Shown piece after piece: positions 8,161-53,917 of a stretch of 64,000 nt of DNA. The position numbers and the translations under genes are program-made. Source of the stretch: Amyelois transitella (Eukaryota > Arthropoda > Insecta > Lepidoptera > Pyralidae). Under the pieces are notes generated by a model. The model was not told where the DNA came from. It searched no databases and saw nothing but the letters and a program-made list of their open reading frames with translations. Numbering within the stretch: the first letter of the stretch is position 1; each line of letters begins with the position of its first letter. The stretch lies in the NCBI RefSeq assembly GCF_032362555.1, contig NC_083513.1, forward strand, positions 3,782,001-3,846,000, given 5' to 3'.

Positions 8161-8161
8161 G

Positions 8162-9900: not shown

Positions 9901-9903
9901 TGT

Positions 9904-10705: not shown

Positions 10706-10766
10706 CAAAGAAAAATAAAGATCATCGAACCTAGACCCTTTCCGACGCTGTTGGCTCTCATTCCCC

Positions 10767-11930: not shown

Positions 11931-11936
11931 GCTTTA

Positions 11937-12072
11937 ATCGATAGCCCGAGCTTTATGAGGTGATTATAAGGTGAAAAATAAAACATATAAATTGAAAATT
12001 TACCAAGAACAACCATTGACTCTTCGGCTTCTTTAGCGAACGTTGTTAACAGTCATTGTGAATATCTGGAAG
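11937..12072 (+). promoter_or_regulatory. Promoter and 5' leader of intact Shx copy
   Basis: The 135 bp before the start codon are conserved in all three array units (11937, 14979, 18779), beginning 'tcgatagc(c/t)cgagctttatga'. A TATA box (tataaa, 11986-11991) lies 87 bp upstream of the ATG. The third unit keeps it at the same distance (18829-18834). The second unit reads 'ttgtaaa' instead and so has probably lost it. That the conserved block is the promoter is inferred from position and the TATA box. Confidence 0.55.
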
Positions 12073-13662: not shown

Positions 13663-13671
13663 GAAAACCAA

Positions 13672-14155
13672 TTGTCTTTAATAATTGGTATCACATATGT
13701 GACCCTACTTGCTCACCCATGCTACGTAACACGATTACCAAAATGGGGAACACCGAACAGAAGTATAAACGGAGTTAAAGAACAGAAATTAAACCACACA
13801 GCATTTACCACTCAGCAAATGCTGCTACTGGAGGAAGACTATTCACGGAACCGTTATTTAGACAGAATACGGCGCTTTGAATTGGCCGAGATTTTTAATC
13901 TAAATGAGAGAAGTATAGAAAAATGGTTCCAGAACCGCAGAATTAGTGAAAAGAAAAACAGATCTGAAGACAGCTTTGGGGAATCCGAAGAAGCAAGGAC
14001 GTCGTAGGAGATGCTGATACAAGGCGATGTTGACATGCCAACATTAGTGATCTACGAGCCATATCAGACAACGCGGGATATGTACAACTGAGAAACTCAA
14101 ATTTATCAGCTATCAATTCCTGCTTCAATCATTCCATAAGATCCTCAATATTTAA
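13672..14155 (+). pseudogene. Class B homeobox copy behind the intact gene
   Basis: A second homeobox starts about 10 bp after the stop of the intact Shx gene. An open frame of 111 codons (13672-14007) holds a full-length homeodomain ([18 protein letters not shown] ... WFQNRRISEKK), but there is no ATG before the homeodomain, no first exon, and a stop right behind it. Compared with the main copy, R5 is His, K46-I47 is Glu-Lys and M54-K55 is Ile-Ser. The tail homology (MLIQG..DMPTL, YEPYQTT) continues after the stop. The same class sits behind the other two array genes. It could be read through in the 3' UTR of the upstream gene, but it is unlikely to make a protein of its own. Confidence 0.75.
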
Positions 14156-14344
14156 TTGTGTAGCAGCTAATGTGCACAGCATCAATCAAAAAATTTGTAC
14201 AAAATACTGGAGCCAGAACATGTCATCGGTTTGTTCTTTCGTTCTAATCATTCCGCATAAATGCCTTTTGTGCTCAACGTAGCTCCATAGGCAAATAACA
14301 AGGACATATCCTTATTAAAGGACTGGAGAAATATAAGTTTCAGA

Positions 14345-14975
14345 GAAAGATCATAAATTGTGTGAACGGATCTTGCACAATGCTTGACATATTATAAGTG
14401 ACTGCATCTGCTTACCCATGCTATCTGACGCAATCATCAAGCTGTGGAACACTGAACAGGAGCGTGAACGAAATTAAATAACTGAACAAAAATCGCACCG
14501 CATTTACCACGCAGGTAATTCTGCAACTGGAGGAATAATATTCACGAAACGAACACGGTGCATTAAACTAGCCGATATTCTCAGTCTAAATGAAAGAAGT
14601 ACAGAAATATGGTTCCAGAACCGCCGAATGAATTGAAAAAAGACAGCATTGAGGAATGCGAAGTAGTAAGGACGTTTCAGTCGTCACCGGAGATGCTGAT
14701 ACAAGGCGTTGTTGACATGCCAACATTAGAGATCTACGAACCATATCCGACAACGTATGAAAATATTATATGTATTACCAAGAAACTCAAAACTGTAAGC
14801 AACTAATTCATGCTCCAATCATACCACAAGACCCTCAATATTCAAGACGAATATATGGAGTACAAAGAAGAACAAGGATTTGGCGCGCAATACATAAGTG
14901 GAAATATACTAGCACGGCAAGAACCAAATAAGTGTCACAACCAACTAGAGCCACTACATACTGAGCTTTCGCCCT
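14345..14975 (+). pseudogene. Class C homeobox copy, unit 1
   Basis: A third homeobox-derived segment of the unit: 'aaaaatcgcaccgcatttac', 'gaggaataatattcacgaaa', then 'cggtgcattaaactagccga' and 'tggttccagaaccgccgaat'. Helix 1/2 is shortened by a deletion and stops occur before and after the homeobox. The tail is recognisable (tcgtcaccggagatgctgat; gatctacgaaccatatccga) up to about 14975, where the next unit's promoter block begins. Confidence 0.7.
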
Positions 14976-15114
14976 CTAATCGATAGCTCGAGCTTTATGA
15001 GGTGATAATAAGTTGAAAAATAAAATTTGTAAATTGAAAATTTACCGAAAGCAACCATTGACACTACGGCTTCTTTAGCGAACGTTGTTGACAGTCATTT
15101 GGAATATCTGGAAG

Positions 15115-16616
15115 ATGTCGTCTCCATCGGAACCTTCGAGCACGGTCGGGACCTTTTTCGACTTAACTACGAATCATTGCGTTCAGCATTTGAACCGCAA
15201 CGCGCCGAGAAATGTAACGGTAAGTTCAAAGTTTGAAAATAAAATAATGTTACTCTTGCCGTTCGTATGTCTATTCGTTGATGGACTACTGGGTTTTCTT
15301 GTACTTTCTCTGTTCATAAAAGAACTGAAGTCTGCTTGGATAATGGTAAACTAATTTATTCACTTTGCCGTATTTTAATGAAGCGTAAAATTATACGCTC
15401 ATCTGTTATTGATCGAACCGTTTTGAATCTTAGAATGTATATTCGTTATTATATATTTTCCCGTGACATATATACCTATACATGCTTATACTCGCGTTCT
15501 CGAAAAAGGCTCTAACGATTTCATTGATATTTGAAATATAACATTTCTATGTTTTTGCACGTAAAAATTAATTTTATTGAAAATTTTTATTATTTAAAAA
15601 CATGCTTCTTGTAGAAAGGCTCATTATAAAAATTGTTATAGATACATTCTTGTTTTGAAATAAATAAGACTTTAAACATGTCAATGTTTTTAGGAGTTCT
15701 GAGAAGTATGTATATCTTATACCATACAACCAGGAAAACGACTGGTTAAAGAAGTAGTTAAGTGTCTAACTCTTTCTTTTCTTATTACAGGCACCGAATT
15801 TACCGCCTTATGAGATGCCGCCTACACAGAATACGGTCCCGGTCCACATGCCGGGGCCTGCGCAACTATCGCCAGCTTACCACGCTTCTAATGGCTTTAG
15901 CATGAATGGTAATATTCAGGACTTGCAGGACAATATTAATGGTTATCACCCAACTTTATGTGGAAACCACAGAGATGGCCACAAATGGTATTACTGGATC
16001 TAACAGATTTAATGGTACTAGATATGTGAGAAGTCGTACTGCATTTACCACGCAGCAACTTTTGCAGCTAGAGGAGAAATTTTCACAAAAACGATATTTA
16101 GACCGGACCCGGCGCATAGAACTGGCAGCGGTTCTGAATTTAAACGAGAGAACAATAAAAAAATGGTTTCAGAATCGTAGAATGAAAGAAAAGAAGGACA
16201 GCTTAGAAGAAAGCATTGAGTAATCCGAAAAAGTGAAGACTGAATCGTCACCGGATATGTTAATAGAAGGTGTTCCTAACATGTTACCATTCGTAATGCA
16301 TGAGCCATATCCACCAGCGCATGGTATGTACTACCTAATGAGTCCAAACTATGAGCTGTCAATTACAACTTCAAATCCAATTGACGAGTATATGGAGTAT
16401 ATAGAGGAACAAGGATTTGGTACGTGAAATATAAGTGGAAATGTTTTAGCACAGCAAGAACCCACTACTTGTTACAATCAACTAGAGCTAGTATATGCCG
16501 AGCCATCGCCCCCCGAATCCAATGACTCTTCCAACATGCCTGCCGCGTCCATTTCAGCTCCGGAGGTACCAGAAAACTTGGATATATCCTGGATTAAAAG
16601 CATGCAAGGATTTTAA
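15115..16616 (+). pseudogene. Shx copy of array unit 2, frameshifted
   Basis: A paralogue of the intact copy. Exon 1 (15115-15219) is open with ATG and gtaagt. The intron ends cttattacag, and exon 2 starts at 15791. The frame is lost near 15973, where part of the 'gatttcaacggccacataat' stretch is deleted, and the basic linker before the homeodomain is also missing. A homeodomain with all core residues follows in another frame (16027-16206), but I47 has become Lys. A nonsense change (gag-taa, 16221-16223) follows, and a further stop lies near 16425. The conserved tail end (DISWIKSMQGF) is still readable. The TATA box is lost as well. Confidence 0.85.
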
Positions 16617-16621
16617 TTCTA

Positions 16622-16797
16622 GGAAAACAACTGTCTGTAATTAATAGTATTGGATATGTGACCCTACTTGCTCACCCACGCTACGTAATACGATTACCAA
16701 AATGGGGAACACCGAACAAGAGTATAAACGGAGTTAAAGCACAGAAATTAAACCGCATAGCATTTACCACTCAGCAAATGCTGCAACTGGAGGAAGA
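16622..16797 (+). pseudogene. Class B homeobox stub, unit 2
   Basis: Linker and first half of helix 1 of the class B copy ('aatggggaacaccgaacaag' ... 'caaatgctgcaactggagga'). It breaks off at 'ggaggaagacaaatgg', where a class A linker joins directly. The same junction occurs in unit 3 at about 20627. Confidence 0.75.
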
Positions 16798-17531
16798 CAA
16801 ATGGTATAAGCGGATCTTACGGATTGATTTGTACTAGATATGTGACAGCAGTAGCAGCAGTGACGCAGCTGCTCGCCTTCGCTACTTGACACCATCATCA
16901 AGTGCGGTAACACCGGGAAAACACGTAAACAGAGTCAAGAAACCAAAGAGACGTCGTACTGCATTTACCACGCAACAACTTCTGCATCTGGAGGAGCAAT
17001 TTTCACAAAACCGATGTTAAGACCAGACGCGGTGCATAAAACTGGCAGCTGTTCTGAATTTAAACGAGAGAACTATAAAAATATGGTTCCAGAACCGTAG
17101 AATGAAAGAATAGAAGGACAGCTTAGAAGAAAGCTTTGAAAAATACGAAAAAGTTAAGACTGAATCGTCACCGGATATGTTAATACAATGTGTTACTAAC
17201 ATGCCACTATTAATAATGCATGAGCCATGTCCACCAGCGCATGATATGTACTACCAAATAACTCTAAACTATGAGCTATCAATTCCAGCTTCAAAGCAAA
17301 TTGACGAGTATATGGAGTATATAGAGGAACAAGGATTTGGTGCGCGAAATATAAGTGGAAATGTTTTAGCACACACCCACTAATTGTTACAACCAACTAG
17401 AGCCAGTATTTGCCGAGCCATCGCCCCCCGAATCCAATGACTCTTCCAACATGCCTGCCGCGTCCATTTCAGCTCCAGAGGCACCAAAAAACTGGGATAT
17501 ATCCTGGATTAAAAGCATGCAAGGGTTTTAA
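16797..17531 (+). pseudogene. Extra class A homeobox segment, unit 2
   Basis: A partial copy of Shx exon 2 from the late linker to the stop. The homeobox (about 16950-17130) contains stops (cgatgttaagac in helix 2; gaatagaagg behind helix 3). The tail from 'gatatgttaatacaatgtgt' to 'aaaagcatgcaagggtttta' is complete. A triplet run (gcagtagcagcagtgacgcag) interrupts the linker. No first exon belongs to it. Confidence 0.8.
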
Positions 17532-17536
17532 TTCTA

Positions 17537-18060
17537 GGGAAACAACTGTCTGTAATTAGTGGTATTGGATATGTGATCCTACTTGCTCACCCACGCTACA
17601 TAATACGATTACCGAAATGGGGAACACCGAATAGGAGCAGAAACGGAGTTAAAATCAAATTAAACCGCCCTGCATGTACCACTCAGCAAATGCTGCAACT
17701 GGAGGAAGAATATTAAAGGAACCGTTATTTAGACCAAACGCGGCGCATTGAATTGGCCGAGATTCTTGATCTTTATGAGAAAAGTATAGAAAAATGGTTC
17801 CAGAACCGCAAAATTAGTGAAAAGAAACACAGATCAGAAGACAGCTTTGGGGAATCCGAAGAAGTAAGGACGTCGCAGGAGATACTGATACAAGGCGTTA
17901 TTGACATGACAACATTAGTGATCTACGAGCCATATCAGACAACGCGTGATATGTACAACTGAGAAACTGGAAGTTATCAGCTATCAATTCCTGCTTCAAT
18001 CATTCCATAAGACCCTCAATATTCAATTGTGTAACAGCAAATGTGTAAGCGCAGCAACAA
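17537..18060 (+). pseudogene. Class B homeobox copy, unit 2
   Basis: Parallel to the class B copy at 13.7 kb, again immediately behind a class A tail. The homeobox has a stop in helix 1 (gaatattaaagg). An open stretch, 17753-17962, covers the remainder (WFQNRKISEKKHRS), with R53 changed to Lys. Confidence 0.75.
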
Positions 18061-18224
18061 TCAAGTAATTTGTACAACCAACTGGAGCCAGTACATGTCA
18101 CCCATTCGTCCTTTTTTTCTAATCATTTCGCATGTATGCCTGTCGTGCTCAATGCAGCTCCAGAGGCAAATAACTAGGATATATCCTGGACTAAAGGCCT
18201 GGAAAAATATAAGTTCCTAAGAAA

Positions 18225-18778
18225 GATTATAAATTGTATGAACGGATCCCGCACAATGAATGATATAGGATAAGTGACTTCATCTGCTCACCCATGCTAT
18301 CTGACACAATCATCAAGCTGGGAAACACCAAACAGGAGCGTGAACGGAATTAAAAAACTGAAAAGAAATCGCACCGTATTTACCACGCAGCTACTTTTGC
18401 AACTGGAGGAACAATATTCACGAAACCGATATTTAAACTGAACGCGGTGCATTAAACTGGCCGAGATTCTCAATCTAAATGAAAGAAAAATAGCAATATT
18501 GTTCCAGTAAAGTAAGACGTTTCAGTAGTAAGGACGTCACCGGAGATGCTGATCCTAGTATGATATGTACTACCAAGAAACTCGAAACAGTAAGCAACTA
18601 ATACTTGCTCCAATCATACCACAAGACCCTCAATATTCAATTGACGAATGTATGGAGTACAAAGAACAACAAGGATTTGGTGTGCTAAATATAAGTGGAA
18701 ATATACTAACTAGCACGGCAAGAACCAAATAATTCTCACAACCAACTAGAGCCACTACATACTGGGCTTTCGCCCTCT
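18225..18778 (+). pseudogene. Class C homeobox copy, unit 2
   Basis: Homologous to the copy at 14.35-14.97 kb: 'aaaagaaatcgcaccgtatt', 'gaggaacaatattcacgaaa', 'gcggtgcattaaactggccg'. The recognition helix is disrupted (attgttccagtaaagtaaga) by a deletion. Homology ends at the promoter block of unit 3. Confidence 0.72.
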
Positions 18779-18915
18779 AATCGATAGCTCGAGCTTTATG
18801 AGGTGACTATAAGGTGAAAAATAAAATATATAAATTGAAAATTTACCGAAAGCAACCATTGACACTACGACTTCTTTAGCGAACGTTGTTGACAGTCATT
18901 GTGAATATCTGGAAG

Positions 18916-20442
18916 ATATTGTCTCCATCGGAACCTTCGAGCACGGTCGGGATCTTTTTCGACTTAACTACGAATCATTCCGTTCAGGATTTGAACCGCA
19001 CCGTGCCGAGAAATGTAACGGTAAGTTCAAAGTTTCAAAATAAAATAATGTTACTCTTGACGTTCGTATGTCTATTCGTTGATGGACTACTCGGTTTTCT
19101 TTCTCTGTTCATAAAATAACTGAAGTCTGCTTGGATCATTGTAAATTTATTTATTCACTTTGCCGTATTTTATTGAAGCGTAAAATTATACGCTCATCTG
19201 TTATTGATCGAACCGTTTAGAATCTTAGAATGTATATTCGTTATTATATATTTTCCCGTAACATATATATGCTTGTACTCGCGTTCTCGAAAAAGGCTCT
19301 TACGATTTCATTGATATTTGAAATATAAGATTTCTATGTTTTTGTACGTAAAAATTAATTTGATTGAAAATTTTTATTATTCAAAAACATGTTTCTTGTA
19401 GAAAGCCTCATTATTACAAATTTTATAGATACATTCTTGTTTTGAAATAAATAAGGCTTTAAACACGTCAATGTTTTTAGGAGTTCTGAGAAGTATGTTT
19501 ATAAATATCTTATACCATACAACCAGGAAAACGACTGGTTAAAGTAGTGGTTAAGTGTCTAACTCTTTCTTTTCTTATTACAGGCACCGTATTTACCGCC
19601 TTATGAGATGCCGCCTACACAGAATACTTCTAATGGCTTTAGCATGAATGGTATTCAGTACGTGCAGGACAATTTTAATGGTCATCACCCGACATTTAGT
19701 GGAAGCCACAGGGATTTCAACGGCCACATAATAACAAATGGTATAACCGGATCTTACGGAAATGTGACCGCAGTTGCTCACCTTCGCTACTTGAAACCAT
19801 CATCAAGTGCGGTAACACCGGGCAAACGCGTAAACGGAGTCAAGAAACCAAAAAGAAGTCGTACTGCATTTACCACGCAGCAACTTCTGCAGCTGGAGGA
19901 GCAATTTTCACGAAACCGATATTTAGACCGGACGCGGCTCATAGAACTGGCAGCGGTTCCGAATTTAAACGAGAGAAATATTAAAATTTGGTTTCAGAAC
20001 CGTAGAATGAAAGAAAAGAAGGACAACTTAGAAGAAAGTATTGAGGAACCCGAAAAAAGTGAAGACTGAATCGTCACCGGATATGTTAATAGAAGGTGTT
20101 CCTAACATGCCACCATTAGTAATGCATGAGCCATATCCATCAGCACATGATATGTGCTACCAAATAAGTCCGAACTATGAGCTATCAATTCCAGCTTCAA
20201 ATCCAATTGACGAGTATATGGAGTATATAGAGGAACAAGGATTTCGTGCGCGAAATATAGGTGGAAATGTTTCAGCACAGCAAGAACACACTAATTGTTA
20301 CAACCAACTAGAGCCAGTATATGCCAAGCCATCGCGCCCCGAATCCAATGACTCTTCCAACATGCCTGCCGTGTCCATTTTAGCTCCAGAGGCACCAGAA
20401 AACTGGGATATATCCTGGATTAAAAGCATGCAAGGATTTTAA
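18916..20442 (+). pseudogene. Shx copy of array unit 3, start loss and frameshift
   Basis: The best preserved of the damaged copies. Exon 1 (18916-19020) keeps donor and frame, but its ATG reads ATA. The intron ends tcttattacag and exon 2 starts at 19584; an ATG at 19608 could start a shorter protein. The homeodomain ([18 protein letters not shown] ... [13 protein letters not shown]) has R31 changed to Leu and L38 changed to Pro, the latter in helix 2. One extra A in 'cccgaaaaaagtgaag' shifts the frame at about 20053, giving a stop at 20067-20069. The rest of the tail is open from 20041 to 20442 in the next frame. The TATA box is intact. A recent pseudogene is the simplest reading; a one-base assembly error in the A run cannot be excluded. 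Confidence 0.75.
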
Positions 20443-20627
20443 TTCTAGGAAAACAACTATCTGTAATTAATAGTATTGGATATGTGACCCTACATGCTCA
20501 CCAACGCTACTTAATACGATTACCAAAATGGGGAACACCGAATAGGAGCATAAACGGAGTTTAAGCTCAGAAATGAAACCGCATAGCATTTACCACTCAG
20601 CAAATGCTGCAACTGGAGGAAGACAAA
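20443..20627 (+). pseudogene. Class B homeobox stub, unit 3
   Basis: The same truncated class B piece as at 16.6-16.8 kb, ending at the same fusion point ('ggaggaagacaaatggtata'). Confidence 0.75.
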
Positions 20628-20960
20628 TGGTATAACCGGATCTTACGGATTGAATGGTACTAGATATGTGACCACAGCTGCTCACCTTCGCTACTTGACA
20701 CCATTATCAAGTAAGGTAATAGCGGGAAAACGCGTAAAAGGAGTCAAGAAACCAAAAACAAGTCGTACTGCATTTACCACGCAGCAACTTTTGCAGTTGG
20801 AGGAGCAATTTTCACAAAACCGATGTTTATACCGGACGCGGCGCCTAGAACTGGCAGCGGTTCTGAATTTAAACGAGAGAACTAAAAAAATATGGTTTCA
20901 GAACCATAGAATGAAAGAATAGAAGGACAGCTTCACTTTTTCGGATTCCTCAAAGCTTTC
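20628..20960 (+). pseudogene. Extra class A homeobox segment with micro-inversion, unit 3
   Basis: A partial exon 2 copy. The open stretch 20650-20922 includes most of the homeodomain ([17 protein letters not shown] ... [16 protein letters not shown]53 to His, I45 to Lys). Behind 'gaaggacagctt' about 28 bp (20933-20961) run backwards: 'cggattcctcaaagctttct' is the inverse of the normal 'agaaagctttgaggaatccg'. The sequence then resumes forward with 'gactgaatcgtcaccgg'. Confidence 0.8.
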
Positions 20961-21490
20961 TGACTGAATCGTCACCGGAGATGTGGACACAAGGTGTTCC
21001 TAACATGCCAACGAACTATCAATCTAAATGAAAGAAGTATAGAAATATGGTTTCAGAACCGCCAAATGAATAAAAAAAGACAGCATTGAGGAACCCGAAG
21101 AAGTAAGGCCGTAAAGAGAAACTGATACAGAAATTGTTGAAATGCCAACATTAGTGATCTACGAGCCATAATTGACAACGTATGATATGTACTACCAAGA
21201 AACTCGAAACTGTAAGCAACTAATTCTTGCTCCAATCATACCAAAAGACCCTCAATATTCAATTGACGAATATATGGAGTAGAAAGAACAACATAGATTC
21301 GGTGCGCAAAATATAAGTGGAAATATACTAGCACAACAAAAACCAATTTCTCACAACTAGAGCAACTATATACTGAGCCTTTGATTCTAATTTAACGATT
21401 ACGATCCAATATTCCCACCGCGCCCATTTTAGCTCCAGAGGCACTAATAAACTGGGGTATATCCTGGATTAAAAGCATGGAAGAATTTAA
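20961..21490 (+). pseudogene. Fused class A/C homeobox remnant, unit 3
   Basis: After 'aaggtgttcctaacatgcca' of the class A tail the sequence switches to a class C homeobox ('ctaaatgaaagaagtataga', 'tggtttcagaaccgccaaat') and then a class C tail ending near 'tggattaaaagcatggaaga'. Only the end of the homeobox remains. Confidence 0.7.
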
Positions 21491-22555
21491 ATTTCAGGAA
21501 AAATACTGTCTTTATCTAATGTGTGCTAATAATATGTGACCACAACTGCTCACGCATACTACGTAATACGATCACCAAAATGGAGAACACCCAACTGAAT
21601 AAAAAGAATGACTGATCTGAAAACAGCTGAATCAGGAAAATGAGGAATCCGAAGAACAGGACGGAGATGCTGATACAAGGCGTTGTTGACAAGCATGACA
21701 TGTTCAACCCAGAAACTCAAAACTATTCCTGTATTGTTCCAGAACCGCAGAATGAATAATTAAAAGACAGATCTGTAGACAGCTTTAAAGAATCCAAAAA
21801 AATACTGCAACTGGAGGAAAACTTTTCAAGACACTGATATTTAACCCAAACGCGGCGCATTGAACTATCAATTCCTGCGCCAATCATTCCGCAGCAACAA
21901 CCAAATCATTCTTTTAAGCAATTAGAGCTAGTATATGTGCCCCCATTCGGCCTTTCATTCTAATAATTCTACCAATAGGCAGTGCAGCCAAACAACTGGG
22001 ATATATCCTGGATTAAAATAGTGGAGAAACATTAGCTGCAGGGACAAATAATTAAATTTAACTGATTTCTAAATCGTATGAACGGATATTACAGAATGAA
22101 TAATAATGGATATGTGGCTGCGGCTGCCACCACGCTTCGTGACATGATCATTAAGTTGGGAAAACCGTACAAGCTGTGAACGGAGATAAAAAACAGATAG
22201 CAATCTCACTGCACTTTTCTGTTTTTCACACACAACTACTCAGCAAATGCTACAACTGGAGAAAGAATATTCACGAAACCTTTATTTAGACCGAACGCGG
22301 CGCATTAAACTGGACGAGGTTCTAAACCTAAATATAAAAATTAAATATACTTCCGGAATCTTCGAATGAAAGAAAAAAAAAACAGGTCTAAAGACAGACT
22401 AATGACAAGAAAAAAGCACATCTGCATCGACACCGTAGATGTAAGTCCAACAACAGAAAAATGCGCCGCAACAACCAAATAATTTGTACAACAATTGGAG
22501 CCAAATGATTCTGCCAATATGTCTGCCGCGTCAGATGCAGCTGCAGTGGCACCTG
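21491..22555 (+). pseudogene. Mosaic of homeobox scraps at the array's right edge
   Basis: Short pieces of the classes above in scrambled order. They include a class B linker at about 21540-21600, a recognition-helix scrap at 21735-21760 ('ttccagaaccgcagaatgaa') followed by a helix 1 scrap ('actgcaactggaggaaaact'), and a longer copy at 22070-22340 ('aatgctacaactggagaaag', 'gcggcgcattaaactggacg'). Stops occur throughout. Confidence 0.65.
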
Positions 22556-31153: not shown

Positions 31154-32598
31154 ATGACAATCATGAAAAATCAAAGTGAGGTCGTTACAAGTTCCTTTTT
31201 TCAAAAGAGGTCATCCGTTTTCAAATACGATTTTATTCGAACTGTAAGTAGTTTTCTGCATTATATTCATTTATTCACATATTCCCGTGTATTTGCCTTG
31301 TGGGGTAGACAGAGCCAGGAGCCTTGAAAGACTTGTAGGCTTCATGCAGCTGTTAGGCTTAATGATAGAATTAGAGATTCAAATGACTGGTTACTGCCCA
31401 TCGCCTTAAATAAGAATCCTAAGTTTATAAGCATATCCCAAGTCCAAGAAAAAATTTCGTCATAATTTTATTGCACAGTAAAGGAAAATCAAACTAAAAT
31501 TTCTCTGAATTGTTATATTAAAAACTAGAAATTGAACTTGATAAATATTAAATGGCTTCTGTTTTTTAGAACTCCCCTCGAGATTCCGGCGGAAAGAAAA
31601 TAAAGAGGATAAGAAGTGCCTTCACGACTGACCAAGTGAATTATTTGGAGAGTGAGTTCAAAAAGTTTCCATACATTGAAACTTCAAGACGAAGAGAAAT
31701 CTCAACTACTTTGAATATTCCTGAACGAGCCGTGAAAATTTGGTTTCAAAATCGTCGAATGAAAGAAAAGAAAGAAAAATTGGAGTGTGAACAAGATATG
31801 CTTCATCAAGATAATCAAAGTGATAAAGAATCTAGTAACGATCCATTAATTAATATATCGGAGATACCATCAGCTAGCGATGACAGATTGAGATCATTGC
31901 CCCATTTGCCATCACTCACCTCGTCGGACGATTTAACAAACACAACCATACACCATGATCCAAAAGCAACTACAGAAGTTTCTGAAGAATTGGTTGACCC
32001 TAAATTATCACCGACACGAGATCAATCGACGTCATATACTGCTACATCACCAGTATCTGAAAAAAGTCCTAGATATAAGTCCTCACCTGAGTTTTCTATT
32101 GATGTATATAAAAAGTATAAAAAATACTTAATTAAAACTAGCCAACACCCAAGAAAACTCGAACCCGACTCGGCACCAAATATAATACAAGAAGAAAAGT
32201 CTGGTGATTGTGAACGATTATCTGAAAATGTTCCTGAGGATTTGTCTCTTAAGAAAGTTAATTCAGAACCGGAATACGATAATGAACATAAAACTGTGCC
32301 TCCAAATAGAATTGAATTATCACCATTTCATTCTCAACCACGTCTGCCTCCAGGAAATATGATTTGGAATGTTATGCCAACGACGCAGCCTGGTCCTTCT
32401 ACGGCTCCGGTAAATAGCAATCATCCATTAATGTTAGCTGCATGTCAAGAACAAACAGTACCAAAGAAAATTTGTAATTGCAATTGTCATGCATCAATAG
32501 TGAATTCAACAGAAGCCACATCACCTCTTGCTCAATACATGTTAACTGCAGTGTCTCTTCAAAATCTCTCCAATTATCCGAATAAGCCACTAGGTTAA
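31154..32598 (+). CDS. Shx: Shx homeodomain protein, subfamily member 1
   Basis: A homeodomain transcription factor, nuclear. Proposed exons are 31154-31243 (30 codons, MTIMKNQSEVV..., donor gtaagt) and 31570-32598 after 'gttttttag', both phase 0, giving 372 aa. The second exon is firm; the first rests on its open frame, donor and matching phase. The homeodomain covers residues 41-100 (31600-31779) with R5, W48, F49, Q50, N51, R53 and M54 present ([14 protein letters not shown]). Behind it lie blocks shared with the genes at 34.4 and 39.4 kb: HHDPKATT, DPKLSP, SPEFSIDVYKKY, ENVPEDLS (PEDLS at 32233-32247 fits the PxDLS CtBP-binding motif), QPGPSTAPVNSN, VPKKICNCNCH and QYMLTAVSLQNL. A SINE sits in the intron. 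Of the three related genes this has the most normal homeodomain. Confidence 0.85.
31267..31442 (-). repeat. RTE-tailed SINE (family 1) in Shx intron
   Basis: 'cttgtggggtagacagagcc' ... 'aataagaatcctaagtttat' lies wholly within the 326-bp intron, making up about half of it. Confidence 0.7.
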
Positions 32599-32925: not shown

Positions 32926-34434
32926 GTAAAGTTAAAATAAAAGGTTACCTTTATTTACATATTTTTATTCAAATAACAACTTAATAAATTATAAAACAAA
33001 CTGAAATGTTAATTTTCATGAATTATTGTATATGATTGTAAATACTAATTAAAACAAACTAAAACTAATTATAATTAAAACATAACCAAAAAATGGAAAA
33101 TCTTAATCATAATTAACAATTCAAAAATCCAATGGTGCCAAGAACTCTGGCTGCATTCCGGCGCTGAATGGCAACCTTATCCTTTGTGCCAGATAGCTCT
33201 CTTGTTAAATTATCATAAAAGAACAGTAAAATGTAATATAATAACTTATTCAACCGAATGAACAGAAAAACTAACTTAGAATAAGATAATAATCTTTTTA
33301 TTTACTTTCAAAATTTAAATCATTACCTTATCTATGTAGTACAATGTACATAAAAGAGAATTGTTTTATTATTTGACAAATTTTAATGTTAAGCTAATAT
33401 ATTAATTGCAGATTCAAACAAATTTATCTTTTATGGAAATTTTAGACCTGATTCCACGCCTTATTCCCCACACCGAAATTCCACACCCAATTTAAATAAA
33501 TAGAGTAATCTATTTAACTTTTGTATTCTATCATCGTCCTTTTTATTAAAAAAAAAATAATTACTTCATTGTCTCATTAAAGTATAAGTTATCTGAAAGT
33601 AAAATGAACATATTATAAAAGAAACTAAATATTTAAATTTTTGGTATAACAACCACCTTCCTACAAAAAAAAAAAATAGTTAAAAATTTAAGGATCAACA
33701 TTCATTTTCATACTCACCTTAAACATTTTGATTTTTACTTTACTTATTTGAATAATACTTAAGAGTGACGGAAATAAAATAACTAAAACCAACAACTTAT
33801 ATGCAAGAAGCTTACTCATAGCTATTTACACTAATAATTATAAGTCCTTATTAATAGTATGATAAATGTGAACGTGTCTTTTTCCATCTTTCACGTCAAA
33901 GCCACTGAAGCGATCTTCATGAAATTTAGTAATCTTCTTTATCTTTTATTCTTTTTTCATTCATCATCTTATGTAATGATGTACATATAAAGGTAATAAT
34001 AATTCACTTGAGTCTCTCTCTCTCTTTTATTAAGTCAGTCCACTTGCCTTTTGTCTTATTTTCTGAGAATTTTTTTTATTTTTTAAGGATTAGGACGTAG
34101 GATAACAGTGGTTTTGCATTACAATTAATAAATGTTGTGACATTTAAATACATAACAACAATATTGAAAAGTTTGATTTAGTGAATTCCGAACTTCTAGC
34201 GATTTTATTACAAAACTAACTAAGGTGTCTTAGTACTTATTATCTTAATCTCTATTAATTGTACTACTGTTTATTATGTTATCTAGTACCCCAGCTATTC
34301 TGCAAAAAATCATGAAAATTTTCAAAATTTCATATTCAGTAGTTAGTTTTTGTGTGAAATAGTGACAAAAATCCTTAGAAACTTTCGTATTTATAATTTA
34401 GTAGGCAGTATTTAATAGCTTCATTTTGTTTTAG
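32926..34434. other. Very AT-rich spacer between Shx genes
   Basis: No coding region or clear repeat. The last 100 bp may be intron of the next gene, since a polypyrimidine tract and ttttag precede its start codon. Confidence 0.45.
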
Positions 34435-35556
34435 ATGGATGACGATCCAGGACATTTCTGTGAAAAAAATATAATTGACTTCACCACTGAACAAGTGAAT
34501 TTTTTGGAGAGTTTGTTTACAACGGTTCGTTACAATGAAGCTCCAGTACAAAGAAACATCGCTAATGCTATAGATGTCCCAGTAAGAGCTGTGAAAATTT
34601 GGTATGAAAATCGACAATTAAAAGAATCAGTAAATGTAGAGTATCAACAAGACATGGTTTATCATGATAATCAAAATTATCAAGAATCTAGCAACGTTTC
34701 ACCAGAAATACCATCAGAAAGCGATCATAGATTGAGATTATTGCGTCAATGCCCACCACACAAGCCTCCGGAAGATTTAACAAACAAAACAGTTCATCAT
34801 GATCCAAAAGCAACTACAAATGTTTCAGAAGAATTTGTTGATCCAAAATTATCACCAAAACAAAATTTATCGACACCATATAGTAAATATAAGGCTTCAA
34901 CCAAAGAGTTATACAAAAAATTTAAAAGTGACTTAATTAAACGTAGCCAACACGCAATGAACTATGACTCTGGAGATTCGCCTTCTACACCATTAATAAG
35001 AGTAGATAAGTCTTTTAATGAAAATGTTCCTGAAGATTTGTCTTCGAGTAAAATTAAGTCGAATTCGGAATGCGATAATACAAATAGAACTGTAGCTCCA
35101 AATGTTACTGGAATGCCACCATTATTTGTTGCTCAACCACATCTGCCTCCAGGAAATATGATTTTGAACGTTATGCCAATGATGCAACCTGGTCCTTCTA
35201 CGGCTCCGGTAAATAGCAATCATCTGTTTACTTTATCTGCATTTCAAGAACAAGGAGTACCGAAGAAAAAATGTATTAATTGCAATTGTCCAATGCCATC
35301 TCCAGGAAATAGGATTTTGAATGCTATGCCAATGATGCAACCTGGTCCTTCTACGGCTCCGGTAAATAGCCATCATCTGTTTACTTTATCTCCACCTCAA
35401 GAACAAGCAGTACTGAAGAAAAAATGTATTAATTGTAATTGTTCAATGCCATCTAATGTAGATTCAACAGAAACCTCATCACATCTTGTTCAATATATAT
35501 TGACTGCAGTGCCTGTTCAAAACCTCCCCAGTTACTCGAATACCCCACGTAACTAA
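34435..35556 (+). CDS. Shx: Shx-type protein with degenerate homeodomain
   Basis: A 373-aa open frame, second member of the three-gene subfamily. The homeodomain region (residues about 9-68) aligns from FTTEQVNFLESLF to VKIWYENRQLKES without gaps. R5 is Ile, F49 is Tyr, Q50 is Glu and R53 is Gln, while L16, F20, W48 and N51 remain. Normal sequence-specific DNA binding is therefore doubtful, although the fold core may persist. The C-terminal blocks are well kept: HHDPKATT, DPKLSPKQN, ELYKKFK, ENVPEDLS (35029-35043, CtBP-type PxDLS), QPGPSTAPVNSN, KKKCINCNC and QYILTAVPVQNL. A 51-codon segment is duplicated in tandem (35149-35454). 'gttttag' lies directly before the ATG, where subfamily member 1 has its exon 2 acceptor, so an upstream exon may exist and the true start may differ. 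Confidence 0.82.
   Translation: MDDDPGHFCEKNIIDFTTEQVNFLESLFTTVRYNEAPVQRNIANAIDVPVRAVKIWYENRQLKESVNVEYQQDMVYHDNQNYQESSNVSPEIPSESDHRLRLLRQCPPHKPPEDLTNKTVHHDPKATTNVSEEFVDPKLSPKQNLSTPYSKYKASTKELYKKFKSDLIKRSQHAMNYDSGDSPSTPLIRVDKSFNENVPEDLSSSKIKSNSECDNTNRTVAPNVTGMPPLFVAQPHLPPGNMILNVMPMMQPGPSTAPVNSNHLFTLSAFQEQGVPKKKCINCNCPMPSPGNRILNAMPMMQPGPSTAPVNSHHLFTLSPPQEQAVLKKKCINCNCSMPSNVDSTETSSHLVQYILTAVPVQNLPSYSNTPRN
35149..35454 (+). repeat. Tandem 51-codon duplication inside Shx gene
   Basis: Two in-frame copies with a 153-nt period, each running from 'ccaggaaat' through MPMMQPGPSTAPVNS and QEQ to KKKCINCNC. They differ at few positions, so the event is fairly young. The paralogues at 31 and 39 kb have one copy. 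Confidence 0.92.
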
Positions 35557-39423: not shown

Positions 39424-40362
39424 ATGGATGATGCGTTTGAACATTCCTTCGCAAAGAAAATGAAAACGATTATGTATAGAAATGCATTTACTCCAGAACA
39501 AGTGAATTATTTAGAGAGTTTATTTAAAAAAAATCCATACATTGAATCTCCAAAACGGAAAGAAGTCGCATATGTTTTGAATGTACCCGATCATGTCGTG
39601 AGAACTTGGTTTCAAAATCGAAGATCGAAAGAAAAGAAAAAAACAGACGAAGTAAAGTATAAACCAGACATGTTCCACCAAACTAATCGAAATATTATAG
39701 AATTTAGTAACGAAACGTATAATGATATGCCAGAAATACTATCGGCTAACGATTATAAATTTGGATTATTGGACCATTGCAAGCCACATACGTCATCTGA
39801 AGATTTCACAAACAAAACAGTAGATCATGATCCAAAAGCAACGAAAGAATTGATTGAGCCAAAATTATCCCCAAAACAAAACCCATTATATATCGCTACG
39901 TCACCAGTTTTGAATAAAAGCCCTAATACTATACATAAGCCAGCAGCCGAGTTTTCCTTTGATTTATACAAAAAATATATGAATGACTTTATTGTCAGTA
40001 GCCAACAGCCAAAAAAGTCAGACTCTGGAGATACGACTTCTAAATTGTCAATTAAAGAAGAGAAGTGTGAGGATTGTGAATATTCATCTGAAAATGTTCC
40101 TGAAGAGTTTTGTACTAAAATCAAGTCAGAACCAGAATGCGATAATAGACAAAGAAATACTGTGCCTTCAAATAGTGTTGAATTACCACCATTATTTGTT
40201 GACCACAATCCAATGATTTGGAATCCAACAAATGTAATGCCAATGACGCAGCCTGGTCCTTCTACAGCTTCGGCAACCAGCAATCTTCCATCAACTTCAT
40301 CTGCCCCTCAAGAAAAATCAATACCGAAGAGAACTTGTAACTGCTATAGGCATGTTGAATAA
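39424..40362 (+). CDS. Shx: Shx homeodomain protein, subfamily member 3
   Basis: A 312-aa homeodomain protein, third member of the subfamily. The ATG follows 'ttttttag' directly, as in the 34.4-kb gene, so a first exon may be missing from this model. The homeodomain covers residues 15-74 (RNAFTPEQVNYLESLF ... VVRTWFQNRRSKEKKK) with R5, W48, F49, Q50, N51 and R53 kept, but K46-I47 is Arg-Thr and M54 is Ser, which may alter base contacts. Shared blocks are DHDPKAT, EPKLSPKQN, EFSFDLYKKY, ENVPEEF (the CtBP-type PEDLS is lost here, 40099-40113), IKSEPECDN (a SUMO-type IKSE), QPGPSTA and IPKRTCNCYRH, where it ends. It lacks the QYxLTAV tail of the other two. A polyadenylation signal aataaa lies at 40390. 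Confidence 0.86.
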   Translation: MDDAFEHSFAKKMKTIMYRNAFTPEQVNYLESLFKKNPYIESPKRKEVAYVLNVPDHVVRTWFQNRRSKEKKKTDEVKYKPDMFHQTNRNIIEFSNETYNDMPEILSANDYKFGLLDHCKPHTSSEDFTNKTVDHDPKATKELIEPKLSPKQNPLYIATSPVLNKSPNTIHKPAAEFSFDLYKKYMNDFIVSSQQPKKSDSGDTTSKLSIKEEKCEDCEYSSENVPEEFCTKIKSEPECDNRQRNTVPSNSVELPPLFVDHNPMIWNPTNVMPMTQPGPSTASATSNLPSTSSAPQEKSIPKRTCNCYRHVE

Positions 40363-43754: not shown

Positions 43755-46700
43755 ATGAATTCTCAAGTTCCACATATCAACCCCGTGATAACAAGTACGG
43801 ATGGATCGGACATTCAGAATATGACGTCCAGTATCTGTTCCAATACAAATTTAGAGGAGTATTGGAACATTGGCTTCCATCAAAATCAAATTCCAATTCA
43901 AACTAATCAGGTATGTTAACATTGACTTTATTTATTTTTCTATATATATTTTTTGGTTATATTGATTTCAGTTTGGAACCTATTTTTATAAATCTATGCA
44001 ACTTTATGATTGTCAATCCCATTTTTGCAGCTGTGCATTTTTAGCCATAAAATATAGTATCGTAGTGTACTCCAATAAGTCTCGAATTTACTTAAGGTCA
44101 ACTCATTGTGTGTAACTTGGCCAATTATTATATTATTTAATTCATCATTATTTCTGTAACACATTTTAAAGTTATTGATTTAACATATACGAGTATTTTT
44201 TTCTTATAACTTTTTTTTACTATTTCAGGCTCCGCAGTGTACCGAACAAATCGAAAACGTTTTATTAAATTTGGATAATCAGCCGCCACTAGCACCAGAG
44301 GTAAGTTTTTATTTAATATTCCGAGTGTATTTAAAATATATTTAGTTAGTACCGATACGCGCGCGGTTTTAACCCGCGTACTTATATCCGTCCACAACAG
44401 TGAGATAAAAAGCTCGAGGTGTTGTTAATAAAATTGATAAAATCAGTCTGGTAGTTTTTGAGTTAATGCGATAAGAAGAAAATTATAAGAAATATTAATA
44501 GTTTATATTATATCCAACATTAAACCATTCAACTGAACGTGGTCTTTAAGTTTGTGCGAAACCGTTGGCTCTGTCTAACCCAATAAAGACGTGATTATAT
44601 GTATACCTATATTTTTTTATATATTTTGCAACACATTAAGAGCTATTGATTTTCCCTTTTATTTACTTATAGTATAATTTATTTTACTATTTCAGGCTCC
44701 GCCGTGTATGCAACAAGCGGGAGCATCGTTATTCAATAATCAACAGGCACTAGTTCCAGAGGTAAATATTGTACAAATTTCACTCAAGTAATTTCTCAGC
44801 CACAATAAAAACTTTTAATTTTATGCATACATATAATCTATATCAAAGACTAAAAGGTCACGCTCATCTGTATGTCTTACTCATGGAATTGAAATTCAAA
44901 TAATGACAGTTTGCTAGCTCGTTGCCTACAACTACCTACGTTGATTTTATAAAATTAATTTTTCTAATACTGTCATGTTTCTCCTATTTCAGGATCCGCA
45001 GAGTATGGAACAAGTTATTGACATGTTATTAAATACTAATAACCAACAACCACCAGCTGCACAGGTAAATTTTATTTAATAATTTGACTGTAATAACATA
45101 ATAAGTATTTTTTATATTTCGATCTTACTTTGTATTCAAAATCCCGCTTTCAATCTTGTGTCAACTACAGGTTTTTTTATTTGACCACCGACTCACATTT
45201 AAAGTAAACAATAAAAGTAGATCATAAATTAAGACTCGCGAGTCTAAAATTTAGAACGCGGGTTACGTCCCTTCGATGAGTGTAATTTTTTTCTGGTAGT
45301 TTTATGATCGATGGCCCGGTGTGTACACTGATTCTGTACGGTTTCGCGAACATAATGTTCAAACTTCACGACTATGAATAGAAAGACCCAAGCCTCTGTT
45401 GTTTGCACCCTGCAGACTTTAGTCTTTGGTCTGACTAATAGCGACAAAAATAGTGGAGGACAATCAACTGATGATGGTGTCTGTCAAATTCAGTTACGCA
45501 AAAAAATGAACAGAAAATCCGCCTTTTCATTGTCACTAAGTCTATTAAAATATCAGTTCAGTTTTCTTGCCGTGCTAATCGTTATTAGTTTATAGTGTAC
45601 TATTATTGCAATCAAGAACATTGAGTAATTTCTAAGAGTTTTTTATAAGTTCAACTTTGTAAGCTCATGAGTCTTAACTCTGGCACCTATTTATACGTTC
45701 TAACATTCTTTCGGCTGGTGTGTACCCAGCTTCAAAGAATAAATAGGCCGTTGAAATTATAAAATATTATTTGCTACCCCACAAGCCATTAAATATTAAG
45801 TGTACCTACTCTCTGAATTGCGTGAGTGTGTAAAAACTGATAAAATTTTTAAACACATATCTAACATAATAATTAACTATGTTCCGAAATGATTTAATGT
45901 GGATGTACACACCTCTCGAATACACAAATGAGGTAGGCAAATGGAGGCATTAATTTTGAAGTCTATAAGATCCCCGTTTTTTGAACGTTTCCAACTGAAC
46001 GTAGATTTCCAGTTTTTTTTCGAGATTGTTATCGCTGTCTACCCCGTAAAGGGATAAATATATGATAACTTCTATGTTTGAATTTATTATTTATTTTTAC
46101 TTTTTGTTGCAGGTTCACCAATGGGAAAATAGACCCTTTGTTGGAAATTGGCCCACGCAGCCAGTTAATAATAATACACAACCCAGAGGTACATATTACT
46201 TTTATAGACTTTTGCGTGAATTTTAAACTGTTGCATCAATTACATCATTCTTCTTTAGTGTCGGTTGTGTTTTCACCTCTTTGCCCGAGGTTTACCTATA
46301 GCCACGGTCCAAGATTAGGGAAATCAGGATTAAAGATGTAAATTGATGCAAATTAATCTTAAATTATAAGTTTATCCTTTAAGGGTACTCATATCCTAAT
46401 CGTTTTGCAGATAGTACTAAATATAAAATTTTGTTACAGAATTCAATGTCACAACACCGAAAATAAGAAAACCAAAACGATTTCGAACAGCGTACACCAC
46501 GGAACAGTTACAATTTTTAGAGAGAACTTTCGCTTGCAACAAATACATAACCGCACAGTTACGCCGAGAAATCTCAAATTCAATCAAGATCAATGAGAGA
46601 TCCATAAAGATCTGGTTTCAGAATAGACGCATGAAAGAAAAAAAGGAGTGCCTCGAGTCTTATTCAGATTCTTCATGTGAAAGTCCTTCTTTTCCTAGTA

Positions 46701-47089
46701 GCGATTCTTCCAGTGAAGTACCTAGTTATGAAATTAAACTCCTATTACCTAGTGCCGTTTCTTCCAGTGGGGTATCAAGTACTGCAAATGAACTCGCTTT
46801 ACCTAGTAACAATTCTTTCAGTGCATTACCTTGCGGCGATAATTTTAAGAATGCACAATACGGAGTTCCTTTCAACTCGGAGTTGACACAATTCAACAAT
46901 GAACATGGAACAATAGTGCCTGTGGAACAAACAGCGACGATTCCTCAACAGGCTGCTGTTAATCCTACTGGGAACTATCCTAATTATTATAATTATAATA
47001 AGAATGATGTAAGTCATAATACATATAACAGCAATACGGTCAGTCCGGATTTCTGGTCGCCTTATAGTTTCGATGCAAGCTACTTTTAA
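43755..47089 (+). CDS. Shx: Shx homeodomain protein with six exons
   Basis: A homeodomain transcription factor of 363 aa. Exons: 43755-43910, 44229-44300, 44696-44761, 44993-45064, 46113-46188 and 46440-47089. Every intron has GT/AG ends; the first four junctions are phase 0 and the last is phase 1. Exons 2-4 (24, 22 and 24 codons: APQCTEQIENVLLN.., APPCMQQAGASLFN.., DPQSMEQVIDMLLN..) are tandem duplicates. The homeodomain is residues 159-218 (46472-46651), with R5, W48, F49, Q50, N51, R53 and M54 present ([14 protein letters not shown]). A serine-rich stretch follows (SYSDSSCESPSFPSSDSSSE), then an Asn/Tyr-rich tail ending SPYSFDASYF. It is the Shx gene nearest to zen and faces it tail to tail. 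SINE scraps lie in introns 2-4. Splice sites are predicted by eye. Confidence 0.85.
44525..44612 (+). repeat. SINE family 1 fragment in intron 2
   Basis: 'aactgaacgtggtctttaag' to 'aataaagacgtgattatatg': only the 3' third remains. Confidence 0.6.
44838..44940 (-). repeat. SINE family 1 fragment in intron 3
   Basis: 'atcaaagactaaaaggtcac' and 'gacagtttgctagctcgttg' mark a decayed copy. Confidence 0.55.
45120..45740. other. Unidentified insert-like block in intron 4
   Basis: The 1-kb intron 4 holds a block of higher GC content (about 45230-45730; 'ggcccggtgtgtacactgat', 'ttcggctggtgtgtacccag') unlike the short introns around it. It may be an old transposon. No frame in it is convincing. Confidence 0.35.
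46010..46072 (+). repeat. SINE family 1 scrap, end of intron 4
   Basis: 'gttatcgctgtctaccccgt' and 'aaagggataaatatatga' match the SINE 3' end. Confidence 0.5.
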
Positions 47090-51918: not shown

Positions 51919-53917
51919 TTATAAAGAAATATAAGAAGAATACTTGCTTGTAGATGAAGTCTGTTGATTAGTGGTCTCTGGTGGTGTTGTTAAATATGAA
52001 TAGTATGCATCTTGAGTCAAAGATAAGGTTGGGTTTCTAGAATGCAAATTACTTTCTTCATAAGTCGGTGCGGATAACGAGGATAATGACGTGCCAAATC
52101 CATAAGCTTCGGAAGTTGGAGGGTGCATCACCACTCCCGTTGTTAATGGATTATAATATGAAGAAGGCGTGGCAGTGTATCGAGGCAAATCATCGCTTAA
52201 CTTCAAGTTGACTCCGTTGGGCACGTAGCTATCGGTTTGCAGTGTGGACAGAGTATTAGAATTTGGCTGCAGTGATTCATCGACCGAGTATCGATAAACC
52301 TCCGACATCGGTGAGTAAGCGGCTCTACTTGTTCCTGGCGTGTAGTATGAGGAATAAGACAGGTTTGGAGTATAAGACGGAAGCTCAAGCGTATTCTGGG
52401 GTCCTTTTATCACAGATTTTAGTGAATTAATCGAAGAATAATCAGGGGGTCTTGATAGCGAATCATTTGTAGGCATAAAAACTTTGTGATGATTAGTATG
52501 ATTGTCAGTCAAAAGACGCCTATGTCTATCATGTCCACCGCAGCCTCTTCCATGGCTCATTTTATGTTCTTGACTAGGAGACATCTCTTTGGAACTAGAA
52601 GGACTGTTATCTTCCACTGATGAGGATGGCTTATTGTGCTTATTATCCTTTTTATATTTCATCCTTCTATTTTGAAACCATATCTTAATTTGTCGTTCAG
52701 AAAGCTGTAAGTAATTAGCAAGTTCAATGCGTCTTGGTCGACATAGATAACGGTTTTGGTGAAATTCATTTTCTAATTCTACTAGCTGTGAACTAGTGTA
52801 AGCTGTCCTTGCTCTTTTCGTAAATCCCTTCTGATAGGATGACTGCTCTGATGACATTTCTGAAATAAATAAGAAGTTCTTTACATAAAAACCTAATATA
52901 ATGTCATGTTATTATAAAAAAATAACATAAATAGAATCAAGTACATACCGTTACCAGAAAGAGATGACGCCGTCCTTGTTGTAGATATAGGGTTATTTAG
53001 CGTTGCTTTGTTACTCCATGAAATATTGTTCTGAAAATAATAATAAATATGCTAAATGCGTGTCACTTATTAAATAGTTGGCGATAAAATAAGTTAAATT
53101 CAACCTACTTCTCAACCACTACTGACAAATTAATTAAATTGTCATTATAAATCCGGTTATGTTGTGGTAAATCACGATAGGTTGCATACCTTTGGTGCAA
53201 CTAAAATATGTTTGTATCATTGGCATAAGGTTCAAAATAATTGTATTTTCTTACCTGACTGGGAAAACTAGTTTCATTTATTTCGTTAATTACTCTTCCA
53301 GGATCTTTGGTAACATCACCGTCAAAACTGCTTCTTGCTTGATATTGGACTGGTTCACTAATTGCATAGTTTCTATTGTGTTCAACTGGATTACCAAGTT
53401 GCGTTACAGATGAACTAAAAATATCGCCACCTTTATTGATGCAATCTTCAGCTAAGGTTTCTTCAGTGCCAGATCCATAATTGTTATTATTAGAACTATT
53501 GCTAATGTTTTCATAGTTCGGTATCTGATAATCATATCTCGGTTCCAAATCTTCTTGATTGCTTGCAGGGTTGTATGTTTGATGTAAACCAAGAATATCT
53601 TGTATGCTAAAACTAGTTGAATCCCTTGAATTGTAGTCTTGCACAAACGGGTTAGGTATTGATGAAATTATTTCTGCTTTGCAGTCTGTGAATGCATTTT
53701 CATTCACAGTATAATTTACTCCTTCAGAGAGTATATCTTCGACCCCATGAGACGTGATTGAATTTTTATAGTCATTTTTTTGTATTGGATCAAAAATCTG
53801 ACTGTTCTGATATTTTGTTATATTCTTACCAGATAATTCTGATGAAATTGAATCTCTCGAATCTTCAAATTCTGGATCAGAAAGAAGACTTGGCATTGAA
53901 GAAGACGATGTTGACAT
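51919..53917 (-). CDS. zen: Zerknullt (Hox3) homeodomain protein, three exons
   Basis: The insect Hox3 derivative, a nuclear transcription factor that specifies extra-embryonic serosa. Exons on the minus strand are 53917-53255 (221 codons), 53030-52949 (82 nt) and 52859-51919. They are joined in phase 0 and phase 1 with GT/AG ends, giving 561 aa. The homeodomain is residues 262-321 (52821-52642): [19 protein letters not shown], then [16 protein letters not shown], then [16 protein letters not shown], with all core and contact residues intact. It is far more conventional than the neighbouring Shx homeodomains. The N-terminal region is acidic and Ser/Asn-rich; the tail is Ser/Tyr/Pro/Thr-rich, ending SKYSSYISL. 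The start is the first ATG in the open frame ([12 protein letters not shown]). zen lies opposite in direction to all Shx genes here. The identification rests on the homeodomain plus the Shx neighbourhood. Confidence 0.9.

What the first reader, a model, noticed from the sequence alone, without database searches (positions are those of the whole stretch)
34435..34700. Intact gene with a homeodomain that has lost key DNA contacts
In the 34.4-kb gene the homeodomain aligns without gaps, but R5 is Ile, F49 Tyr, Q50 Glu and R53 Gln; only W48 and N51 of the recognition core remain. The 373-codon frame is open and its C-terminal motifs are conserved. It could act as a protein-interaction or dominant-negative form of its neighbours rather than a normal DNA binder. 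Position 50 sets base preference in homeodomains, and Glu there is unusual.
Basis: partly seen in the sequence, partly recalled or inferred. Interest (0 to 1): 0.75.

Follow-up and report, generated by a model that had tools for sequence, protein, structure and literature searches.

The report
Moth Shx gene with eroded homeodomain
In a moth-type Hox cluster, one of three neighbouring copies of a fast-evolving homeobox gene still has a complete reading frame, but the surface its protein would use to hold DNA has lost many of its key residues, so it is probably an eroding duplicate, or just possibly a protein that found a job without DNA.

Summary
At 34435-35556 (+) an open 373-codon frame encodes a homeodomain (HD, 34459-34638) with I5, Y49, E50 and Q53. 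HD net charge is -1; the other 17 complete HDs found in one scan between pb and Dfd range from +2 to +11. AlphaFold2 still gives a three-helix HD, at lower confidence than its sister.
The locus is a lepidopteran Shx (special homeobox) gene by place, between pb and zen, one of three related copies (31.6, 34.4, 39.4 kb). Its HD has changed faster than theirs (p 0.006), but not if HD and tail get fully separate branch times (p 0.34). Branch dN/dS is 0.66 and 1 is not excluded. An open frame over that much divergence argues for coding through most of its history.
Most likely it is a duplicate under relaxed constraint whose protein no longer binds normal homeodomain sites. The dominant-negative idea is possible (a PEDLS corepressor-type motif survives) but untested. 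Shx divergence, duplication and decay are published: new variant of a known kind.

The parts
34435..35556 (+). g34: open 373-codon exon of an Shx gene (stop included)
   Evidence: Pfam Homeodomain 31.4 bits
34459..34638 (+). homeodomain 1-60 with I5, D7, Q31, Y49, E50, Q53, S57, V58; net charge -1
34433..34434 (+). AG of a TTTTAG splice acceptor; exon would start in phase 0, as in the two sister genes (inferred from sequence, no transcript)
34768..34782 (+). PEDLT, second match to the CtBP-type pattern; not matched in the sisters
35029..35043 (+). PEDLS, CtBP-binding-type motif, shared with g31, degenerate (PEEFC) in g39
35147..35452 (+). in-frame 153-bp tandem duplication (2 copies, 93% identical) that doubles a CINCNC-containing tail segment
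35851..35856 (+). AATAAA, possible poly(A) signal (a second at 35893)
31570..32598 (+). g31: sister Shx gene with the usual HD contacts and PEDLS
39424..40362 (+). g39: sister Shx gene, HD keeps R5, R31, Q50, N51, R53, K57 (but T47); tail shorter, PEEFC in place of PEDLS
46442..47089 (+). g46: Shx gene next to zen (ShxD position)
51919..52857 (-). zen homeodomain exon
363..22383 (+). array of ShxA-like homeobox copies and fragments, several with stops or frame breaks

Best explanation
g34 is an Shx gene of a ditrysian moth or butterfly, made by tandem duplication with g31 and g39 in the pb-zen interval of the Hox cluster. It stayed protein-coding for most of its history, but constraint on its homeodomain was released. 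The domain probably still folds as three helices, yet its basic N-terminal arm and much of its recognition and phosphate-contact surface (R5, R31, Q50, R53, K57, K58) are gone, and its charge is -1 where the sisters have +8 and +7, so it should bind ordinary homeodomain sites weakly or not at all. Any remaining effect would come from the tail; more likely the gene is a duplicate drifting toward loss in a region known for gain and loss of Shx copies. Shown here: residues, charge, frame, place in the cluster, predicted fold, and faster HD change under two of three model settings. Inferred: loss of binding, relaxed constraint rather than selection for a new role, absence of a strong function.
For: Place: pb-type HD pieces at C9:3631476-3632138, then ShxA-like copies, the window, zen, and a Dfd-type HD at C9:3903822 (the names pb and Dfd are recalled from HD sequence). 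g34 is 55% and 49% identical to g31 and g39. A protein search of the 327-Mb own genome gave 6 matches at E <= 0.001, all in this window (that tool scores only its best candidates). HD net charge -1, the only negative one of 18 complete HDs. Of 34 HD sites equal in g31 and g39, g34 differs at 16; unique changes in HD and tail are 16 and 25 for g34 against 12 and 72 for the two sisters together, Fisher p 0.003. HD w on the g34 branch 1.27 against 0.46 in the sisters, with one tail w of 0.50 for all three, LRT p 0.006, and p 0.006 again if the HD has its own synonymous scale. HD tree: g34 end branch 2.02 against a median of 0.082. Frame: 5.2% of random substitutions would be nonsense; by formula P(no stop) is 0.005 at neutral divergence 0.09 and 9e-5 at 0.16, and in simulation 3 of 300 and 1 of 300 runs stayed open; fitted neutral branch times for the g34 tail run from 0.15 to 0.31. 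The two copies of the internal duplication differ at 10 codons, 8 of them amino-acid changing, which by eye is what drift would give (not tested formally). AlphaFold2: three helices, pLDDT 78-90 over residues 11-60 (for the g31 control at 95-96 over residues 21-60); solved HDs fill the listed top 50 Foldseek matches, and a sequence search of solved structures also finds HDs, best E 4.1e-05.
Against: dN/dS for the whole gene on this branch is below 1 (0.66), and with shared synonymous times a fully neutral g34 is rejected (p 0.006), which points to some remaining constraint; that rejection vanishes if the HD has its own synonymous scale (p 0.49) or separate times (p 0.84). The HD-acceleration result itself vanishes with fully separate times (p 0.34) and in the HD-only fit (lnL -464.44 against -464.81), because the HD of g34 also looks fast at synonymous sites. 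Three paralogues and 60 HD codons give little power. Changes are not significantly enriched at DNA contacts over core sites (5 of 8 against 3 of 11, p 0.18). K46, I47, N51 and K55 remain, so weak or altered DNA binding is possible. No expression data.
Confidence: 0.5

Rival explanations
1. Repurposed protein without DNA binding (HOPX-like in manner): the HD serves as a protein-interaction fold, and the tail, with PEDLS plus PEDLT, holds a CtBP-type corepressor away from the sister Shx proteins or is brought to DNA by a partner, making g34 an antagonist of g31 and g39 in the extraembryonic cells where Shx genes are expressed.
For: One tail w for all three genes (0.50) fits as well as a separate one for g34 (0.64, p 0.41) while the HD is accelerated. 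PEDLS is at the same aligned place in g31 and g34, and PXDLS is a CtBP-binding motif in flies (PMC12469452, passages). HOPX shows that a homeodomain can lose DNA binding and work through proteins (PMC9179269, passages). Shx genes are expressed in presumptive serosa of Pararge aegeria (PMC4207634, Results read).
Against: A PxDL[ST] match arises in 401 of 20000 shuffles of the g34 tail and 621 of 20000 of the g31 tail, and the motif is degenerate in g39. Tail w=1 on the g34 branch is not rejected (p 0.24). The buried I26N and lower model confidence suggest erosion rather than refinement. No expression, partner or phenotype data.
Confidence: 0.2
2. Working DNA-binding protein with altered preference: N51, I47, K46 and K55 still read an A/T core, and Glu50 shifts the flanking base preference.
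For: N51, I47, K46, K55, W48, R52 and Y25 are kept; the predicted fold is kept. HD w above 1 on this branch in some fits (1.27; not different from 1, p 0.42) leaves room for adaptive change. Ferguson et al. modelled divergent Shx HDs as able to bind DNA (PMC4207634, Results read).
Against: Loss of the arm basic residues, R31, R53, K57 and K58 together, with net charge -1, should remove much of the general DNA affinity (inference); Glu at 50 and Ile at 5 are absent from the 103-protein Drosophila table.
Confidence: 0.17
3. Recently dead pseudogene: no longer transcribed or translated, frame open only because death was recent.
For: Branch w=1 not rejected. The internal duplication drifts in a way that looks neutral. 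Neighbouring ShxA-like copies carry stops, and probable Shx pseudogenes are reported in Bombyx (PMC4207634, passages). No first exon was found for g34.
Against: At neutral divergence 0.04, P(no stop) is about 0.10 by formula (36 of 300 in simulation), and lower with indels under an assumed indel rate. The protein aligns to both sisters in one frame to near its end. Acceptor, stop and a possible poly(A) signal are present.
Confidence: 0.13

Closest known systems
Lepidopteran Shx (special homeobox) genes, ShxA-ShxD and their tandem expansions (PMC4207634, PMC9977156)
   Same: Place between pb and zen, fast homeodomain divergence, motifs C-terminal to the HD, tandem duplication; probable pseudogenes reported in Bombyx
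   Different: The Shx HDs modelled in PMC4207634 were judged compatible with DNA binding; g34 has lost many contacts and its positive charge. Assignment to ShxB or ShxC could not be made, since no orthologues were at hand
HOPX (homeodomain-only protein) of vertebrates
   Same: Homeodomain fold with DNA-contact residues missing
   Different: HOPX has a one-residue insertion between helices I and II and reported partners (SRF, HDAC2; PMC9179269, passages); g34 is a Hox-cluster gene with a long tail and no shown partner. Analogy only, not kinship
bicoid and other zen-derived genes of insects
   Same: A zen duplicate with a changed residue 50 (bicoid Lys50 is recalled, from no call)
   Different: Bicoid gained a new DNA specificity (recalled); g34 has lost charge and contacts

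Membership tests
Lepidopteran Shx genes | Located between pb and zen in the Hox cluster | tested here: met
   pb-type HD at C9:3631476-3632138 (-), zen at window 51919-52857 (-), Dfd-type HD at C9:3903822; names of pb and Dfd recalled from HD sequence
Lepidopteran Shx genes | Encodes a homeodomain | tested here: met
   Pfam PF00046 31.4 bits, above the cut-off of 22.9; predicted HD fold
Lepidopteran Shx genes | Homeodomain derived from zen, grouping with one of ShxA-D | tested here: inconclusive
   HD tree of 13 rows leaves g34 unplaced on a very long branch, 7 of 10 inner branches open; kinship to g31 and g39 rests on the shared tail; no lepidopteran orthologues were available
Lepidopteran Shx genes | Expression in oocyte or presumptive serosa | not testable with these tools
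   no RNA data at hand
DNA-binding homeodomain (HOX-like) | Arg5, Asn51, Arg53 and a net positive charge together (set chosen from recalled homeodomain structure) | tested here: not met
   N51 kept, but I5, Q53 and net charge -1
HOPX | One-residue insertion between helices I and II | tested here: not met
   g34 helices 1-3 align without insertion to the sister HDs; it resembles HOPX only in manner
Pseudogene | Stop codons or frameshifts, or neutral evolution throughout | tested here: inconclusive
   frame open, improbable if long neutral; whole-branch w=1 not rejected

The most novel reading that the evidence does not exclude
A Hox-cluster gene has become a homeodomain protein that does not hold DNA: it uses a conserved PEDLS tail to take up corepressor and so antagonise its own DNA-binding sister Shx proteins in the serosa, an insect counterpart in manner of HOPX that arose inside a tandem array.
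Probability: 0.13. Interest if true: 0.65.

Novelty: new variant of a known kind. Interest (0 to 1): 0.38.

Why it matters
Mulhair et al. [quoted passage not shown] g34 gives a sharp test case: three neighbouring sister genes, two with most of the usual contacts and one without, so expression, binding and removal can be compared directly. If g34 is only eroding, it supports the neutral birth-and-death view; if it is kept in related species, it would be a homeodomain freed from DNA within a Hox cluster.

Tried and rejected
Upstream coding exon for g34: DNA and translated comparison of the upstream regions of g31, g34, g39 and g46, plus a scan for ATG-to-donor frames, gave no convincing shared first exon. 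g31 has a plausible one at 31154-31243 (strong donor, judged by eye). For g34 there were only short DNA similarities: 23 bp shared with the region just before g39, another 19 bp with it, and a few pieces of 20-84 bp with the region before g46.

Retrocopy idea from the 13-bp direct repeat at 34217 and 35550: rejected by eye, since the 3' copy lies at the gene end, where g31 has similar sequence.

So no orthologue was compared.

Genome-wide homeodomain count (PF00046 in the own genome): not obtained. Rfam on the window: one tRNA match only. Papers on Glu at position 50: a four-term search with 'position 50' and 'glutamic acid' found none; 'homeodomain' with 'Glu50' gave 5 papers, seen as a listing only and judged unrelated. 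A search for homeodomains that do not bind DNA led to the HOPX review. 'Not in print' is not claimed beyond the searches.

Full report
What is there. The reading frame at 34435-35556 (+) is open for 373 codons, and its only Pfam match is the homeodomain (31.4 bits, cut-off 22.9). The picture is in one way worse and in one way better than described. Worse: R31Q, K57S, K58V, A7D and buried I26N are also changed, and the N-terminal arm counted from the exon start is shorter than in the sisters (16 residues to F8 against 18 and 22), although the 9-sequence alignment needs no gap there against g31. Better: K46, I47, R52, K55 and Y25 remain, and Tyr at 49 is a tolerated core variant (PMC4901127, section 'The HD sequence' read).

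How unusual. Net charge over HD 1-60 is -1. In a single motif scan of 180 kb upstream, the window and 60 kb downstream, 18 complete stop-free HDs were found; the other 17 range from +2 to +11. The scan asks for W48, N51 and a few core residues and reads each fetched piece alone, so more degenerate, split or edge copies are not counted (the pb HD, split by an intron, is one). Glu50 occurs once more, in a second-type ShxA-like homeobox at C9:3744708, net +2. In the Drosophila table of PMC4901127 (103 HDs) no row lists Glu50 or Ile5; the text gives Arg5 for 99 of 106 HDs.

Setting. The window lies at C9:3782001-3846000 of a 327-Mb, 33-contig genome. A pb-type HD lies at C9:3631476-3632138 on the minus strand, then many ShxA-like copies and fragments, then g31, g34, g39 and g46, then zen, then a Dfd-type HD at C9:3903822. 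The names pb and Dfd are recalled from their HD sequences; zen and Shx follow from place and from the papers. This is the pb-Shx-zen arrangement of ditrysian Lepidoptera (PMC4207634: abstract, Results and part 1 of the Discussion read; PMC9977156: abstract and three sections read). g31, g34 and g39 form one tail-sharing group (55% and 49% identity to g34) lying where ShxB and ShxC would be; which of these they are could not be tested. All three exons start after a T-rich TTTAG acceptor in phase 0, so an upstream exon may exist; none was found for g34.

Selection. Three paralogues only, so power is low. One ratio for all branches: w 0.53, and w=1 everywhere is rejected (lnL -2339.46 against -2348.43). 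For the g34 branch w is 0.66, and w=1 is not rejected (-2339.11 against -2339.89). With shared synonymous times the g34 HD has w 1.27 against 0.46 in the sisters, with one tail w of 0.50 (p 0.006), and a fully neutral g34 is rejected (p 0.006); the g34 tail, if given its own w, is 0.64 against 0.45, not a significant difference (p 0.41), and tail w=1 is not rejected (p 0.24). The HD acceleration survives giving the HD its own synonymous scale (p 0.006) but not fully separate branch times (p 0.34); the rejection of a neutral g34 survives neither (p 0.49, p 0.84). Shared times are themselves rejected when no extra HD w is allowed (p 0.03) but not when it is (p 0.50). In the tail-only fit the g34 w is 0.91 against 0.48. 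A count of unique amino-acid changes agrees with HD acceleration: 16 g34-unique against 12 in the sisters in the HD, 25 against 72 in the tail, p 0.003. DNA contacts are hit at 5 of 8 sites and core sites at 3 of 11, p 0.18 (site classes recalled), so erosion aimed specifically at contacts is not shown.

Coding or dead. About 5.2% of random substitutions in this frame would make a stop. By formula the chance of none is 0.10 at neutral divergence 0.04, 0.005 at 0.09 and 9e-5 at 0.16; simulation gave 36, 3 and 1 of 300 runs open, and 0 of 300 at 0.25 (the indel rate used there is assumed). Fitted neutral times for the g34 tail lie between 0.15 and 0.31. The gene was therefore probably coding for most of its branch; a recent death is not excluded. 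An in-frame 153-bp duplication (35147-35452) differs at 10 codons, 8 changing the amino acid, which looks like drift but was not tested.

Fold. AlphaFold2 with 9 aligned homeodomain segments, all from this window, gives three helices for g34: mean pLDDT 72.0, blocks 78-90 over residues 11-60 and 67 at 61-70. The g31 control, same 9 sequences, gives mean 80.7, blocks 95-96 over residues 21-60, 91 at 61-70 and 65 at 11-20. The 50 listed Foldseek matches are solved homeodomain chains or complexes holding one. Two jobs and one search were run; no DNA complex was modelled.

How it probably works. With the arm basics, R31, R53 and K57 gone and Glu at position 50, general affinity for DNA should fall sharply (inference from homeodomain structure knowledge). 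The tail keeps PEDLS at the same aligned place as g31; PXDLS binds CtBP in flies (PMC12469452, passages). Such a match arises in 401 of 20000 shuffled g34 tails and 621 of 20000 shuffled g31 tails, so its presence in two sisters, which share descent, is suggestive, not proof; g39 has lost it. I put most weight on an eroding duplicate, with a repurposed antagonist, an altered-specificity binder and a recently dead gene as rivals.

Novelty. Shx divergence, expansion and probable pseudogenes in Bombyx are in print. Loss of DNA binding by a homeodomain is known for HOPX (PMC9179269, passages). I found no paper on an Shx homeodomain without contacts in the searches, in a library that lacks most subscription journals. 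Hence: new variant of a known kind, of moderate interest.

Noticed in passing
C9:3768983-3781315 of the own genome (L008, L007), just left of the window: A head-to-tail array, spacing about 673-747 bp, of homeobox fragments, many sharing the same break and stops in the middle of the HD: a satellite-like array built from a dead ShxA-like homeobox.
   Followed up: partly
window 13786-13959, 16029-16202, 17657-17827; L010 at C9:3744708: Several ShxA-like HDs carry Lys at position 47, and one carries Glu50 as well; position 47 is Ile in most other copies read.
   Followed up: no
window 35147-35452: In-frame 153-bp tandem duplication that doubles a CINCNC-containing tail segment found once in g31.
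   Followed up: partly
window 26731-29310 and 37885-38784 (-): Frame of 859 aa and broken pieces that look like LINE reverse transcriptase (named from recall, no family search), lying between the Shx copies; PMC9977156 links LINE density to Shx expansion.
   Followed up: no
window 2954-3883 (-): Frame resembling a mariner-type transposase (named from recall).
   Followed up: no
window 44708-44761 and 44975-45064: Possible first exons of g46 (ATG frames ending at GTAA donors).
   Followed up: no
window 47961-48455: Tandem repeat of 189 bp, 2.6 copies, between g46 and zen.
   Followed up: no
window 50387-50458 (-): tRNA match (Rfam 34.4 bits, cut-off 29), the only Rfam match at the gathering score.
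   Followed up: no
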